Positions 2,805 to 20,132 of a stretch of DNA of 64,000 bases are shown here, one piece after another. Position 1 is the first letter of the stretch; every line of letters starts with the position of its first letter. The notes below the pieces were generated by a model that worked only from the letters and a program-made list of their open reading frames with translations, had not been told where the DNA came from and did not search any database. The position numbers and the translations under genes are program-made. Origin of the DNA: Jiella mangrovi (GTDB lineage: Bacteria > Pseudomonadota > Alphaproteobacteria > Rhizobiales > Rhizobiaceae); NCBI RefSeq assembly GCF_017815135.1, contig NZ_JAGJCF010000006.1:124001-188000 (forward strand), read 5' to 3'.

Positions 2805-5800
2805 TCAGTAGGATCTGTAGGCCGAGATGATCGCGGTGATCTGCAGCGTGTCGAGCGACTGGCTCTGGGTCGGTGTGATCGCCTGCAGGTGCTCGGGGCT
2901 GAGAGCCATGATGCTGCTCGGCGACAGGCCGGTGATCGCGGTGGTGCTGATCGCCGCGATGTCCGCCGCCGAGAAGACCGAGATCTGGCTGCTGCTGAGC
3001 GCCGCGATCTGTGCCGCGCCGAGGCTCGCGACCTGGATGGAGGTCAGGGCTTCCGTCTGTTCGGCGGTCATGGCCGTGATCATGTCCGGCGTCAGCCCGG
3101 CGATGGCGCTCGGGCTGATCGAGGCGATCTGCTCGGGCGAGAATCCCGTGATCTTGTCGGTGCTGAACGTCGCCACCTGGATGGCGTTGAGCGCGCCGAT
3201 CTGCGTGGCGGTCATGCCCTTGATCTGCGGCGTGTCGAGCGCCCTCAGCTGATAATAGGAAAAGGCCCCGATCTGCGCGTTGGTCAGGGCAGCGATCTGA
3301 TCGCCGCCGAGCGCCGAGATCTGGTCGGCGGACAGCCCGGCGATCGCCGTCGACTTGATCGCCGCGATCTGGGCGGTGGAGAAGGCGGCGAGGTCGGCGG
3401 CCGAAAGCGCGGTGATCTGGCTGGAACCGAGCGCCCCGATCTGCGCCGAAGAGAAGCTGCTGACCTGCGCCAGGCTCAGGGCCTCGATCTGGGCCGGCAT
3501 GAGGCCCGCGACCGCCTTCGGCGTCAGGGCTGCGACCTGCGTCGTGGTGAGCGCGCCGATCCCGTCGGTTGAGAGCGCGGCCGCTTGGCCGGCGGTGAGG
3601 GCGGCGATCTGCGTCGTCGTCAGGATCTCCACCTGCGAGGGCGAAAGGGCGGCGACCTGGTCGGCCGTCAGCCCGGCGATCTGTGCCGGTTGAAGGGCGG
3701 AGACCTGATCGAGGCTGAGGCTGGCGATCTTTTCGGCGGGCAGGCCGGCAATCGCCGTGCCGGTAAGCGAGGCGATGCTGCTGGACGACAGTGCGGCGAG
3801 GGCGGAGCTGCCGAAGGCTGCGACCTGCGTCGAGCTGAGAGCGGCGATCTGGGTCGTCGTCAGCCTGGCGATCTGTTCGTCGCCGAGGGACGAGATCTGC
3901 GCTGCGGTCAGGCCGGCGATCGCCTTGTTACCGATCGCGGCAAACTGATCCGGCGTGAATGCATTGAGCGTGTCGGCCGAAAGACCGGACACCTGGCCGG
4001 CCCCGAGGGCCCCGATCTGCGTCGTCGACAGGGCGCTCGTCTGCGTCTGGGACAAGGCATTGAGCTGGCCCGTGGTCAAGGCTGCGATCTGGCCGTTCGT
4101 CAGGGCCGCGATCTGATCGGCGCCGAAGGTGGCGAGATTCGCGGTGGTCAGGCCGGAGATTGAGCCGGGGCTCAGCGCGGCGATATCGGCGGCCGAAAAA
4201 CTCGCCGCCGCGTCGAGGCTGACGGCCTGAAGCTGGGTCGCCGTCAATGCCGCGAGTTGCCTCGTCGTGAGATCGTGAATCCGGTCGGCGGTGAGGCCTG
4301 CGATCTGGTCTGCGGTCAATCCGGCAATGGCCTTGACGCTGATTGCGGCCAGCTGATCGCCCGACAAGGCCGTCAGCTGGTCGCTCGACAGCACGGCCAC
4401 CTGCGTCGCGGTGAGGGCCGCGATCTGGTTAGTCGAAAAGGCGCCCGTCTGGGTCGGGGTCAGCGCGGCGACCTGCGCCGGCTTCATCGCGGCGATCTGG
4501 CTTGCGGAAAAGGCTGACGTCTGCTCGACGGCGAGACCGGCAATGGCGTCCGCCGAAAGGCTCGACACCGGGCCGGTCCCGATCGCGGCGATGTCGGCGG
4601 GCGAAAAGGTCGCCAGATCCGCCGGGCTGAGCGCCGCGACTTGCGCCGCCGTCAGCGCGGCCACCTGCGCCGGGGTGAGCGCCTCGGCCTGCAGCGCGGT
4701 GAGGCCCGCGACATGTGACGCCGTCAGGCCGGACACGGCCTTGGCGTTGAGGGCGGCGACCTGCTCCACCGACAAAGCGGCGATGGAGACGTCCGGCATC
4801 GCGGAAAGCTGCGCCGCCGTCAGGCCGCGGATCTGCGGGAGCGACAGGCTCTGGATCTGCGAGGGCGTCAGGGCGGCCGCCTGCGCGGGCTTCAGCCCGG
4901 CGATCTGGGCCGGCGAAAGCGCGGCGATCTGGCTCTCGTCGAAGCCGGCGATCTTGTCGCCGGAGATGGTCGCAAGGGCGCTGACCGTCAATGCCCCGAC
5001 GCCCTCCGGCGAGAGCGCCGCCAGCTGGTCGGCGCTCAGCGCCGCCACCTGCCGGGACGTGAGCGCCGCGGCCTGCGCCGGCAGCAAGGCTTCGATCTGC
5101 GGCTGCGAGAGGGCGGCGGTCTGGGTTTCGGTCAGGCCCGCGACCGCCTTGGGCGTGAACGCCGCCATCTGCTCGGGCGTGAGCGCGGCGAGACTGTCGG
5201 CCGCAAGGGCGGCGAGTTGCGGCCCCGAGAAGGCGCGGATCTGCGGCGTCGTCAGCGCTTCGGCCTCAGCCGGCGTGACGGCGGCGATCTGTGCCGGCTT
5301 CAGCGCGGCGATCTGGCTGGCGGTGAGGCCGGCGAACTGGTCGAGGCTGAGAGCCGCGACATTGTCGGCGGACAGTCCGGAAATGGCGGCCGGACTGATC
5401 GCCGCGATGTCCGCCCGGGAGAAGCGCTCCATGGCGGTGGAAGTGATGGCGGCGAGCTGCCGGGCGGTGAGGCTGGTGACCTGCGACGGGGTGAAGGTCT
5501 CGGCCTGCGCCGGCGTCAGGGCCGCGACCTGCGCTGCGGTCAGCCCGGCGACGGCGCTCGGTTTCAGCGCCGTGATCTGTTCGGCGGACAATTCGCCGAG
5601 GGCCGGAAGGGAGAGGGCGCCCACCTGCGCGGCCGTCATGGCGCCGATCTGCTGCACCGACAGGCTATCGACCTGTGGCGCGGTGAGAGCGCCGATCTGG
5701 GCGGGCTTCAACGCGACCACCTGCGCCGTCTTCAGAGCAGACACCTGCTCGAGGCTGAGCGCGGCGATATTCTGCGTCGAAAGCCCGGCGATCGCATTGG

Positions 5801-7049
5801 CGCCGATTGCGGCGAGTTTGGCTGGCGAGAAGCTTGTGACGTGCTCGCTCGTCAGGTTCGCGACCTGGGTCAGGCTGAGGCTTGCGACCTGCGACGTGCT
5901 CAGCGATTCGCTCTGGGCTGCGGTCATTCCTGCGATCTGGACGGTGGTGAGACCGGGCATGGCCTTGGGATTGATCGCGGCCACCTGCGCCGGGGAGAGG
6001 CTGGCGAGGCCCTCGGTGCCAAGGGCTGCCACGTGGACGGCGGACAATGCGCCGATTTGCGCGATCGACAGCGTCTCGATCTGCGCGGACGAGAGCGCCT
6101 TGATCTGGCTCGCCTTCAGGGCGGCAACCTGGCCGGTCGTCATCGCACCGAGTTGATCCGCCGTCAGCGCCGACATCGCGCTGGCCGACAGGCCGGCGAT
6201 CGACCTTGGGCTGATCGCCGCGAAATCGGCGGTTGAAAACTGCGCGATCTGGTCGGCGCCGAAGGCTGCGACCTGTCTCGACGACATGGCGGCGATCTGC
6301 TGGGGAGAAAGAGCCTCCACATGCTCGGCGCTCATTCCCGCGATCTGCGCGCTGGTGATCCCGGTGACGGCGCGCGCACTGATCGCGGCGATCTGGGAGG
6401 TGGAGAGCGCGGCAAAGCTTTCCGGCGAAAGCGCGCCGATCTGGCTCGGCCCGAAGGCGCCCATCTGGGCCGGACTGAGCAGCTGGACCTGCGTGTCGGT
6501 CAGGGCCTTGGCCTGGCCGGCGCTCAATGCCGCGATCTGGGTCGTCGTCAGAGCCGAAACCTGGTCGCCGGAGAGCGAGGCGATCTTCTCAGCCGACAGG
6601 CCGTACAGTCCGACGACGCTGATCGCGGCGATATCCGCGGTCGAGAAGGTTGCAAGGTCGGCAATGCTGAGGGCTGCAATCTGCGTACGCCCGAGACTGC
6701 CGATCTGCGCGGGTGTCAGGGCCTCCGCCTGATCGGTGGTGAGACCCGCGATCTGAGACCCCGTGAGCGCCGCGACCTGCGATTTTCCAAGGCTTGCGAT
6801 CTTGTCGGTTCCAAGCGCCGCAATCTGGTCCGACGTGAGGCCGCGGATGGCTTTCGCGGAAATCGCCGAAACCTGGGCTTCGGACAGCTGGGCGATGGCA
6901 TCGACCGAAACGGCCGCAATCTGCGCGGCGTTCAACGCCCCGACCTCGACGGGGCTGAGCGCGGTCAGCTCCTCGACGCTCCAGCTGGAGACGGTTTTGG
7001 CCGGGGTGGTCTTGATCTGGAGAAGGGTCTGCGAGGAGATCGTCGTCAT
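2805..7049 (-). CDS. Giant octapeptide-repeat protein with 17-octad super-repeat
   Basis: A 1414-residue protein of unknown function. After a 20-residue leader it consists of 174 consecutive octapeptides (residues 21-1412) plus a two-residue tail, with no break in register. The consensus is x-A-L-[ST]-x-x-Q-[IV]. Octads of the form AAIS-x-x-AI followed by [AS]GL[ST] recur with alternating spacing of 10 and 7 octads, giving a 136-residue (408-bp) super-repeat. One anchor class begins at residues 141, 277, 413, 549, 685, 821, 957, 1093, 1229 and 1365. I see no cysteine, one tryptophan (residue 23), no signal peptide and no membrane segment. S/T-x-x-Q resembles a helix N-cap box, so a solenoid of short helices is possible; a beta-solenoid cannot be excluded. 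No strong ribosome-binding site precedes the ATG. Similar Ala/Leu/Thr/Gln repeats occur in poorly characterised large alphaproteobacterial proteins; no function can be assigned. Confidence 0.85.
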   Translation of the reverse strand: MTTISSQTLLQIKTTPAKTVSSWSVEELTALSPVEVGALNAAQIAAVSVDAIAQLSEAQVSAISAKAIRGLTSDQIAALGTDKIASLGKSQVAALTGSQIAGLTTDQAEALTPAQIGSLGRTQIAALSIADLATFSTADIAAISVVGLYGLSAEKIASLSGDQVSALTTTQIAALSAGQAKALTDTQVQLLSPAQMGAFGPSQIGALSPESFAALSTSQIAAISARAVTGITSAQIAGMSAEHVEALSPQQIAAMSSRQVAAFGADQIAQFSTADFAAISPRSIAGLSASAMSALTADQLGAMTTGQVAALKASQIKALSSAQIETLSIAQIGALSAVHVAALGTEGLASLSPAQVAAINPKAMPGLTTVQIAGMTAAQSESLSTSQVASLSLTQVANLTSEHVTSFSPAKLAAIGANAIAGLSTQNIAALSLEQVSALKTAQVVALKPAQIGALTAPQVDSLSVQQIGAMTAAQVGALSLPALGELSAEQITALKPSAVAGLTAAQVAALTPAQAETFTPSQVTSLTARQLAAITSTAMERFSRADIAAISPAAISGLSADNVAALSLDQFAGLTASQIAALKPAQIAAVTPAEAEALTTPQIRAFSGPQLAALAADSLAALTPEQMAAFTPKAVAGLTETQTAALSQPQIEALLPAQAAALTSRQVAALSADQLAALSPEGVGALTVSALATISGDKIAGFDESQIAALSPAQIAGLKPAQAAALTPSQIQSLSLPQIRGLTAAQLSAMPDVSIAALSVEQVAALNAKAVSGLTASHVAGLTALQAEALTPAQVAALTAAQVAALSPADLATFSPADIAAIGTGPVSSLSADAIAGLAVEQTSAFSASQIAAMKPAQVAALTPTQTGAFSTNQIAALTATQVAVLSSDQLTALSGDQLAAISVKAIAGLTADQIAGLTADRIHDLTTRQLAALTATQLQAVSLDAAASFSAADIAALSPGSISGLTTANLATFGADQIAALTNGQIAALTTGQLNALSQTQTSALSTTQIGALGAGQVSGLSADTLNAFTPDQFAAIGNKAIAGLTAAQISSLGDEQIARLTTTQIAALSSTQVAAFGSSALAALSSSSIASLTGTAIAGLPAEKIASLSLDQVSALQPAQIAGLTADQVAALSPSQVEILTTTQIAALTAGQAAALSTDGIGALTTTQVAALTPKAVAGLMPAQIEALSLAQVSSFSSAQIGALGSSQITALSAADLAAFSTAQIAAIKSTAIAGLSADQISALGGDQIAALTNAQIGAFSYYQLRALDTPQIKGMTATQIGALNAIQVATFSTDKITGFSPEQIASISPSAIAGLTPDMITAMTAEQTEALTSIQVASLGAAQIAALSSSQISVFSAADIAAISTTAITGLSPSSIMALSPEHLQAITPTQSQSLDTLQITAIISAYRSY

Positions 7050-19066: not shown

Positions 19067-19705
19067 ATGTCTCGCATCTTTGCTTATGCCCGGGTCTCGA
19101 CCGTCGAGCAGCACACGGAAAACCAGCTTGGCGAGATCCGCGCGGCGGGGTTTAAGGTCGAGCCGCGCCGGATCATCACGGAGACCATTTCCGGCTCGAT
19201 CGCCGCGTCGGAGCGGCCCGGCTTCGCCCGGCTGGTCGACCGGCTGGAGGAGGGCGACATCCTCGTCGTCACCAAGCTCGATCGCCTCGGCCGCAACGCC
19301 ATGGACGTCAGGAAGACCGTCGACCAGCTCGATGAGATCGGCATCAAGGTTCATTGCCTGGCGCTCGGCGGCGTCGATCTGACGAGCCCGGCGGGGCGCA
19401 TGACCATGGGCGTCATCAACGCGGTGGCCGAGTTCGAGCGCGATCTTCTGATCGAGCGCACCCAGGCCGGGCTGACACGGGCCAAGGCCGAGGGCAAGAC
19501 GCTCGGCCGTCCCCCGCGCCTCACCGAAGAGCAGCGGCGGGCGGTGCTCCGCAAGCTGGAAGAGGGCGCCTCCATCTCGAGGCTCGCCCGCGACTATGGC
19601 GTCAGCCGCCTGACGATCACCCGCGCCCGCGACAAGTCCAGGGATGCCGGAAAGATCGCCGACCATGCGCCGGGCGGGGAGCTGGCCGATGCCGATCCGG
19701 CGTGA
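19067..19705 (+). CDS. Serine recombinase (resolvase/invertase family)
   Basis: A 212-residue small serine recombinase. The catalytic domain starts [11 protein letters not shown] with nucleophile S11, followed by [13 protein letters not shown], the [29 protein letters not shown] helix region (about residues 107-135) and [11 protein letters not shown]. The C-terminus (about 165-195) carries the helix-turn-helix [18 protein letters not shown]. Such enzymes resolve or invert DNA at short dimer sites. The gene overlaps the next HNH-type gene by 17 bp. It is flanked by unrelated core genes and is probably part of a small acquired unit. I see no inverted sites or target duplication. Confidence 0.92.
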
Positions 19706-20132
19706 AGACCGGCATTTTTATCCGATCGACTGGCGCGAGCTGTCGACGGCCATCCGCTTCGGCCGGGCCAAGGGCCGCTGCGAGCGCTGCGGCCGTCCGC
19801 ATGGCGAAACCGTCTATCATCTTCCCGGCGGCCGCTGGTTCGACAAAGAGGCGGAGCGCTGGCGCGATGGTCGTGGGCGCGTGGTGCGAAAGAAATCGCT
19901 GCCGGATCCGAGGTTGAACGACGCCGGCCCGGCGCCGCCCCGCACGCTGGTGCGTCTCGCCTGTGCCCATCTCGACCAGGACACCTCCAACAACGCCGCC
20001 GACAATCTCGCCGCGCTCTGCCAGCGCTGCCATCTCGAACACGATCGCCCGTGGAACCGCGAAAAGCGCCGGCTGACCTTTCTCCTGCGACGCGCCATCG
20101 GCGATCTCTTCACCGGGCCCTACCGGCGATAG
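19689..20132 (+). CDS. HNH-endonuclease-like zinc protein
   Basis: A 147-residue protein beginning [15 protein letters not shown]. It has a [10 protein letters not shown] knuckle (about residues 35-44) and a second metal-binding half [13 protein letters not shown] then [15 protein letters not shown] (about 95-125), giving the two CxxC pairs and His/Asn/His order of HNH nucleases. Such proteins occur in phages and mobile islands as nicking or homing-type nucleases. The ATG at 19689 overlaps the recombinase gene. It ends 22 bp from the convergent autotransporter gene. Nuclease activity is inferred from the motif only. Confidence 0.8.

What the first reader, a model, noticed from the sequence alone, without database searches (positions are those of the whole stretch)
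2805..7049. Protein built of 174 uninterrupted octapeptides with a 17-octad (408-bp) super-repeat
Counting by eye, 20 + 174x8 + 2 residues equals exactly 1414, so the octad register is never broken. Octads of type AAI-x-x-x-AI followed by a GL octad alternate at 10 and 7 octads. One class falls at residues 141, 277, 413, 549, 685, 821, 957, 1093, 1229 and 1365, each exactly 136 apart; the octad before it is usually F-S-x-A-D-I-like, and an E-A-L-type octad recurs in the same phase. The first part (before residue 141) is irregular. Such nested periodicity implies growth by whole 408-bp unit duplication, followed by strong divergence of the DNA while octad length stayed fixed. That fits a long, regular solenoid under structural selection. 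No known domain, secretion signal or catalytic site is visible.
Basis: seen in the sequence. Interest (0 to 1): 0.85.

Follow-up and report, generated by a model that had tools for sequence, protein, structure and literature searches.

The report
Giant octapeptide solenoid with five-turn super-repeat
The gene encodes a giant protein made of 174 back-to-back eight-residue repeats (the little-studied bacterial ALTTAQ family), each predicted to form one tiny helix of a long coiled rod; its 17-repeat super-pattern fits about five turns of that rod, and most relatives travel with a sugar-attaching enzyme that this organism lacks.

Summary
The minus-strand ORF 2805-7049 encodes 1414 aa = 20 + 174x8 + 2, with a never-broken octad register and a 136-aa (17-octad) super-period that beats every one of 2000 octad shuffles. 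"No known domain" is wrong: the whole protein is Pfam PF20080 (ALTTAQ repeat; 617 bits), and a 120-residue PDB chain of such octads, HeliScrew4, is solved (9zem). AlphaFold2 gives a confident (pLDDT 93-94), strand-free solenoid with one 4-6-residue helix per octad. New here: (1) Across relatives, marker octads are mostly 3, 4, 7, 10 or 17 octads apart, and Gly at octad position 2 repeats every ~3.4 octads, so 17 octads would be five turns; inferred, coordinates were not measured. (2) Length is frozen: 1411-1417 aa in full-length Jiella orthologues, 1415 in Rhizobium rosettiformans; dN/dS 0.23-0.37. (3) Many ALTTAQ genes sit beside a dedicated TPR-GT41 glycosyltransferase clade (17 of 19 ALTTAQ genomes carry GT41, versus 70 of 378 others). 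Those proteins are Ser/Thr-rich at position 5; the focal subfamily is unlinked and Ser/Thr-poor, and its genome has no GT41. Best reading: a rigid, probably exported rod, the unglycosylated variant of a glycoprotein family. Export and function are untested.

The parts
2805..7049 (-). ALTTAQ-repeat (PF20080) giant protein, 1414 aa, 174 octads; only PF20080 gene in this genome
6990..7049 (-). residues 1-20: conserved N-terminal head MTTISSQ(S/T)xLQIK... ahead of the octads; lower model confidence at the extreme end
6630..6989 (-). residues 21-140: first 15 octads, before the first super-repeat unit; includes an invariant Trp and the DQAEALTPAQI octads
2958..6629 (-). residues 141-1364: nine 17-octad (136 aa, 408 bp) super-repeat units, each split 10+7 octads by AI...A(I/V) + GL marker octads; unit starts at residues 141, 277, 413, 549, 685 (degenerate), 821, 957, 1093, 1229
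2808..2957 (-). residues 1365-1414: start of a tenth unit and conserved C-terminal cap LDTLQIxAIxSAYRSY, predicted as the longest helix of the protein (13 residues)

Best explanation
The gene encodes an orphan, probably unglycosylated member of the ALTTAQ (PF20080) family: a long rigid alpha-solenoid in which every octapeptide makes one short helix (positions 5-8 plus 1 or 2 of the next octad), with Leu3 in the non-helical linker, Ser/Thr4 as helix N-cap, Gln7 the most conserved side chain, and Leu3/Ile8 as the inferred core. About 3.4 octads (27 residues) make one turn, so marker octads return to the same face after 3, 4, 7, 10 or 17 octads, and the 17-octad super-repeat is five turns (174 octads is about 51 turns). 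The repeat count is held constant. The protein most likely acts mechanically, as a rod or scaffold at or outside the cell surface; relatives of the linked subfamily are probably O-glycosylated on exposed Ser/Thr5 (and 6) by a dedicated TPR-GT41 enzyme before export, while the focal subfamily has lost or never had that partner. SHOWN: family membership, register, super-period, length conservation, purifying selection, confident predicted helix-per-octad solenoid, GT41 co-occurrence and clade, Ser/Thr difference. INFERRED: octads per turn, buried positions, glycosylation, export and scaffold role.
For: PF20080 617 bits over the whole protein. Sequence match to solved 9zem HeliScrew4, E 4e-18. 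AF2 of residues 1-690 and 725-1414: pLDDT 93.4 and 93.7, one helix per octad, no strand; helix on positions 5-8 (0.99-1.0) plus 1 (0.88), positions 3-4 almost never helical, Gly at position 2 of the next octad shortens the helix (4.2-4.6 versus 5.5 residues). Gln7 and Leu3 are the best conserved octad positions between orthologues (0.82, 0.74). Marker spacings over 24 proteins: 7 (261), 10 (151), 3 (125), 4 (27), 17 (24), others rarer. Gly2 spectral peak at 3.35-3.43 octads in 14 of 18 proteins, 0 or 1 of 200 shuffles reaching it; average peak 3.384. Structural alignments to armadillo proteins place 28-29 residues per ARM turn. Fixed length in relatives; dN/dS 0.23 and 0.37. GT41 link: 17/19 versus 70/378, Fisher p 1.9e-10; one GT41 clade holds all 39 linked copies, support 100/100. 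Same-genome paralogue pairs: Ser/Thr at position 5 is 0.92-0.97 in the GT41-linked copy and 0.29-0.30 in the unlinked 1415-aa copy; focal 0.27. Own genome has no GT41.
Against: Gly2 periodicity at 3.4 is absent or weak in L054, L059, L049 and L050. No signal peptide, secretion gene or surface assay supports export. The GT41 statistics are not corrected for phylogeny; L058 is unlinked yet Ser/Thr-rich (0.76 at position 5), and L127, fetched around a GT41, is Ser/Thr-poor (0.13). The focal protein has no neighbour that hints at its task.
Confidence: 0.55

Rival explanations
1. Intracellular binding solenoid: like armadillo/importin or HEAT proteins it is a cytosolic scaffold whose groove, lined by the marker octads, binds a long or periodic ligand; the 10/7 pattern marks ligand contacts rather than a structural constraint of the coil.
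For: No signal peptide recognised; best structural neighbours are armadillo proteins (Z 7.0-7.7); several octad classes (Gly2, Lys4, polar1, charged6, Phe3) fall on different faces at 5/17 turn per octad.
Against: Z below 8 may mean only a common arrangement; identity between orthologues is lowest at exposed positions 5 and 6 (0.44, 0.44) and highest at Gln7 and Leu3, the signature of fold rather than ligand conservation; giant, Cys-free, acidic, Ala/Thr/Ser-rich composition resembles exported proteins; linked relatives pair with a flagellin-type glycosyltransferase.
Confidence: 0.2
2. The super-repeat has no geometric meaning: it is the trace of how the gene grew, by tandem duplication of a 408-bp unit, and the 10/7 markers are inherited from the ancestral unit.
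For: Flat 40-43% identity among units; relatives with high identity between whole units (L049, L045, L077).
Against: Relatives not built on 17 octads (24-octad units in G235/G331; lags 24 and 34 in L051; spacings 3/4/7 in the L061-L077 group) still keep markers near multiples of 3.4 octads and mostly a Gly2 peak at 3.35-3.43. Both can be true: duplication would keep only units that close on whole turns.
Confidence: 0.25
3. Decaying or functionless repeat ORF.
For: The Jiella pelagia orthologue is split between two frames; three of ten genus genomes lack the gene.
Against: No break in 1414 codons here, dN/dS 0.23 and 0.37, fixed length in other orthologues.
Confidence: 0.03

Closest known systems
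Pfam PF20080 ALTTAQ repeat
   Same: Whole protein matches, 48 significant stretches, 617 bits
   Different: The Pfam model is a 38-residue window over the octads; it does not describe the 17-octad super-period, the ~3.4-octad periodicity, the fixed length or the GT41 partner; no paper with the name was found in the held library
HeliScrew4 (PDB 9zem)
   Same: Chain of AALTPEQI-type octads, aligned over 111 residues, E 4e-18
   Different: 120 residues, apparently a designed protein (inferred from name and idealised sequence); not seen in the Foldseek results, so the folds were not compared; its paper is not in the held library
Armadillo/importin-alpha solenoids; mesothelin
   Same: Solenoids of short helices, about three per turn; best structural neighbours found (Z up to 7.7; mesothelin Z up to 5.8)
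   Different: ARM repeats are about 42 residues with three unequal helices; here the unit is 8 residues and all helices are nearly equal. No sequence relation
Flagellin-FlmG (Caulobacter) and HMW1-HMW1C pairs
   Same: Linked relatives pair the repeat protein with a TPR + GT41-type transferase, as FlmG (TPR binds flagellin, C-terminal GT domain; PMC7591256); some sit in flagellar clusters
   Different: The substrate would be a giant solenoid, and the focal genome has no GT41; glycosylation is not shown

Membership tests
PF20080 ALTTAQ repeat | Score above the curated cut-off (26.4 bits) | tested here: met
   617.1 bits, E 1.4e-190, 48 stretches
PF20080 ALTTAQ repeat | Uninterrupted 8-residue register with L-(S/T)-x-x-Q-(I/V) core | tested here: met
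   174 octads, L3 120/174, S/T4 135/174, Q7 109/174, I/V8 123/174
HeliScrew-type octad solenoid (PDB 9zem) | Same octad sequence pattern | tested here: met
   phmmer E 4.3e-18 over 111 residues
HeliScrew-type octad solenoid (PDB 9zem) | Same three-dimensional fold | not testable with these tools
   9zem not among the Foldseek results and probably newer than that library; no coordinates at hand
Armadillo/HEAT repeat proteins | Repeat of about 42 (ARM) or 37-47 (HEAT) residues with 2-3 helices | tested here: not met
   8-residue unit, one helix each; no ARM/HEAT Pfam match
Armadillo/HEAT repeat proteins | Superhelical arrangement of short helices | tested here: inconclusive
   VIA-align Z at most 7.7, rmsd 6.2 over 258 residues; below the level that separates helical repeats
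Leucine-rich repeat | LxxLxLxxN strand on the concave face | tested here: not met
   No strands in DSSP of either model; PF23952 and LRR chain hits judged low-complexity matches
RTX adhesins / beta-helix pentapeptide or hexapeptide solenoids | Beta coils; GGxGxD nonapeptides or hexapeptides | tested here: not met
   All-helical model; no RTX match in Pfam or NCBIfam
GT41-modified glycoprotein (flagellin/FlmG-like pair) | Cognate GT41 encoded in the same genome | tested here: not met
   No PF13844 match in G000, although 17 of 19 ALTTAQ genomes of the order sample have one

The most novel reading that the evidence does not exclude
ALTTAQ proteins are a class of giant, length-controlled helical rods coiled at about 3.4 octads per turn, most of which are densely O-glycosylated, about one site per octad, by a dedicated TPR-GT41 transferase clade encoded next door; the focal Jiella protein is an unglycosylated paralogue subfamily that keeps the fold without the acceptor positions.
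Probability: 0.4. Interest if true: 0.78.

Novelty: new variant of a known kind. Interest (0 to 1): 0.58.

Why it matters
If the 3.4-octad turn is right, these proteins are an octad-level analogue of the 3.6-residue alpha-helix: a two-level helix whose pitch can be read from sequence. That gives natural templates, up to thousands of residues long, for the kind of octad solenoid whose solved example is HeliScrew4. The GT41 pairing proposes a substrate for an uncharacterised bacterial glycosyltransferase clade together with a natural control (same fold, no enzyme, few acceptor residues), which makes the idea directly testable.

Tried and rejected
(1) Pfam hits to CAAP1, LRR_EndoS, SAM_3 and others and PDB LRR hits were rejected as low-complexity matches: no strands in the model, and for the Pfam ones no matched stretch passing on its own. 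(2) Self-shifted copies as alignment rows for AF2 failed because MAFFT aligned overlapping identical parts end to end; orthologue rows were used instead. (3) Non-Gln7 octads were first used to look for the turn: they peak at 8.5-8.7 and 2.44 octads, not 3.4, probably because they come in clusters; Gly2 is the cleaner marker. (4) Helix length in the DSSP strings has no convincing 3.4-octad peak. (5) A first reading that R. rosettiformans-type genomes have only an unlinked GT41 was corrected: they carry a second ALTTAQ gene beside it. (6) A conserved secretion neighbour was looked for among clustered neighbours and not found. (7) Foldseek over the PDB gave only weak general solenoid matches. (8) Paper searches for ALTTAQ, HeliScrew, octapeptide repeats and GT41 with repeat proteins gave nothing on this family.
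Full report
CHECK OF THE OBSERVATION. The minus-strand ORF at 2805-7049 has 1414 codons. Octads tile residues 21-1412 without a break: 174 of them, plus a 20-residue head and two residues. Identity at lags that are multiples of eight averages 0.319 against 0.084 elsewhere, and the best lag of all is 136 (0.433), followed by its multiples. In octad units lag 17 scores 3.52 identities per octad; 2000 shuffles of the octads gave 2.56 +/- 0.08 and never more than 2.85. The DNA has its best lag at 408 (0.589). The 10/7 alternation holds, with the copy at residue 685 degenerate. Long plus-strand ORFs over the gene (such as 4411-6156) are its shadow: third codon positions are 88% G+C, and the minus frame is the one conserved in orthologues.

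KNOWN FAMILY. A solved chain, HeliScrew4 (9zem), consists of the same kind of octads; it is probably a design, judging by its name and idealised sequence. No paper with either name is in the held library.

STRUCTURE. AF2 with orthologues as alignment gave pLDDT 93.4 (residues 1-690) and 93.7 (725-1414), with no strand and one helix of 4-6 residues in nearly every octad. Helices occupy octad positions 5-8 and usually 1; positions 3 (Leu) and 4 (Ser/Thr) are almost never helical, so position 4 is the helix N-cap. Gly at position 2 goes with a shorter preceding helix. Foldseek and VIA-align give only weak similarity to armadillo proteins and mesothelin.

WHY SEVENTEEN. In 24 proteins, marker octads (Ala/Ser/Gly instead of Gln at position 7, next octad with Gly at position 2) are 3, 4, 7, 10 or 17 octads apart in 588 of 690 intervals. 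These are the whole numbers nearest to 1, 2, 3 and 5 multiples of 3.4. A spectrum of Gly2 alone peaks at 3.35-3.43 octads in 14 of 18 proteins, reached by at most 1 of 200 shuffles each, and the average peak is 3.384; four proteins do not show it. In the focal protein the peak is 3.396. Different residue classes prefer different phases of this turn. Alignment spans against 42-residue ARM turns give 3.59 +/- 0.05 octads per turn, near but not equal. The simplest reading is a coil of about 3.4 octads per turn, so that 17 octads close five turns; this is inference until coordinates are measured. Units of 24 octads in other lineages would be seven turns at 3.43.

EVOLUTION. Seven of ten genomes of the genus sample carry the gene; the named relatives are Jiella and Fulvimarina. 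Four other full-length genus orthologues have 1411-1417 aa at 58-74% identity, and Rhizobium rosettiformans-type proteins have 1415 aa at about 45%. Units inside the protein are 40-43% alike at all distances, while orthologues align best in place, so the units are older than the genus and nothing has been added since. dN/dS is 0.23 and 0.37. In other relatives whole super-repeats have been duplicated more recently (L049).

PARTNER ENZYME. Clustering the neighbours of ALTTAQ genes showed one recurrent family, a TPR + GT41 (O-GlcNAc-transferase-like) protein of about 680 aa, in several lineages starting 19-110 bp downstream on the same strand. In 397 genomes of the order, 17 of 19 with PF20080 have GT41 against 70 of 378 without (Fisher p 1.9e-10, not corrected for kinship). 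All 39 linked GT41s in the tree form one clade with 100/100 support; GT41s of other Jiella form another, and occur also in ALTTAQ-negative Jiella. Further neighbours are nucleotide-sugar enzymes (UDP-galactopyranose mutase by Pfam; others by eye) and, in Agrobacterium and Rhizobium, flagellar and chemotaxis genes (by eye). Genomes of the R. rosettiformans group hold two ALTTAQ genes: the GT41-linked one has Ser/Thr at position 5 in 92-97% of octads, the unlinked 1415-aa one in 29-30%. The focal protein has 27%, and its genome no GT41. In Caulobacter the TPR half of FlmG binds flagellin, and FlmG is required for its modification (PMC7591256). By analogy the linked ALTTAQ proteins are probably glycosylated on the exposed first turn of each helix, and the focal subfamily is not. 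Exceptions: L058 and L127.

WHAT IT DOES. No neighbour of the focal gene (LysR downstream, GntR/FCD upstream) is consistently kept among relatives. Length control, fold-type conservation (Gln7 and Leu3 conserved, positions 5 and 6 free), and a Cys-free, weakly acidic composition suit a mechanical rod. About 51 turns at roughly 1 nm each, a rise taken from general knowledge of alpha-solenoids, would make it some 50 nm long. Surface or extracellular placement is favoured by analogy with flagellin/FlmG, but no export signal was identified.

VERDICT. A real and well-described feature belonging to a known but uncharacterised repeat family. What is new is the reading of the super-repeat as whole solenoid turns, the frozen length, and the GT41 partnership with its natural unlinked control.

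Noticed in passing
L057:7998-11741 and L037:4663-9037: The Jiella pelagia orthologue is split between two reading frames, so it is a frameshifted gene or a sequencing error.
   Followed up: partly
L049:1-2466: ALTTAQ gene with 90% protein identity at a lag of 408 residues (three super-repeats): a recent whole-unit duplication.
   Followed up: partly
L076:730-22221, L063:4775-16677, L092:730-15564: ALTTAQ genes with or near GT41 lie in or beside flagellar genes (chemotaxis, fliF, flgE, flagellins) at different places in different lineages, as if the module had moved there more than once.
   Followed up: partly
L083, L087, L090, L092: Linked ALTTAQ-GT41 pairs are followed or flanked by nucleotide-sugar enzymes (UDP-glucose dehydrogenase-like and epimerase/decarboxylase-like, by eye), which may hint at the sugar donor.
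   Followed up: no
G003-G009 (L103-L109): Other Jiella-type genomes hold a GT41 of a different clade, unlinked to ALTTAQ and present also in strains without ALTTAQ; the window's genome has none.
   Followed up: yes
G871, G889, G901, G910, G919: One distant genus of the phylum has many PF20080 matches, in open frames of up to 5675 codons.
   Followed up: no
window 19067-19705 (+): ORF that reads as a serine recombinase (resolvase), followed by a small ORF at 19644-20132 that looks like an HNH-type protein, by eye only.
   Followed up: no
L097, L098: Class-level relatives use a 24-octad unit (576 bp) instead of 17, also near a whole number of 3.4-octad turns.
   Followed up: partly
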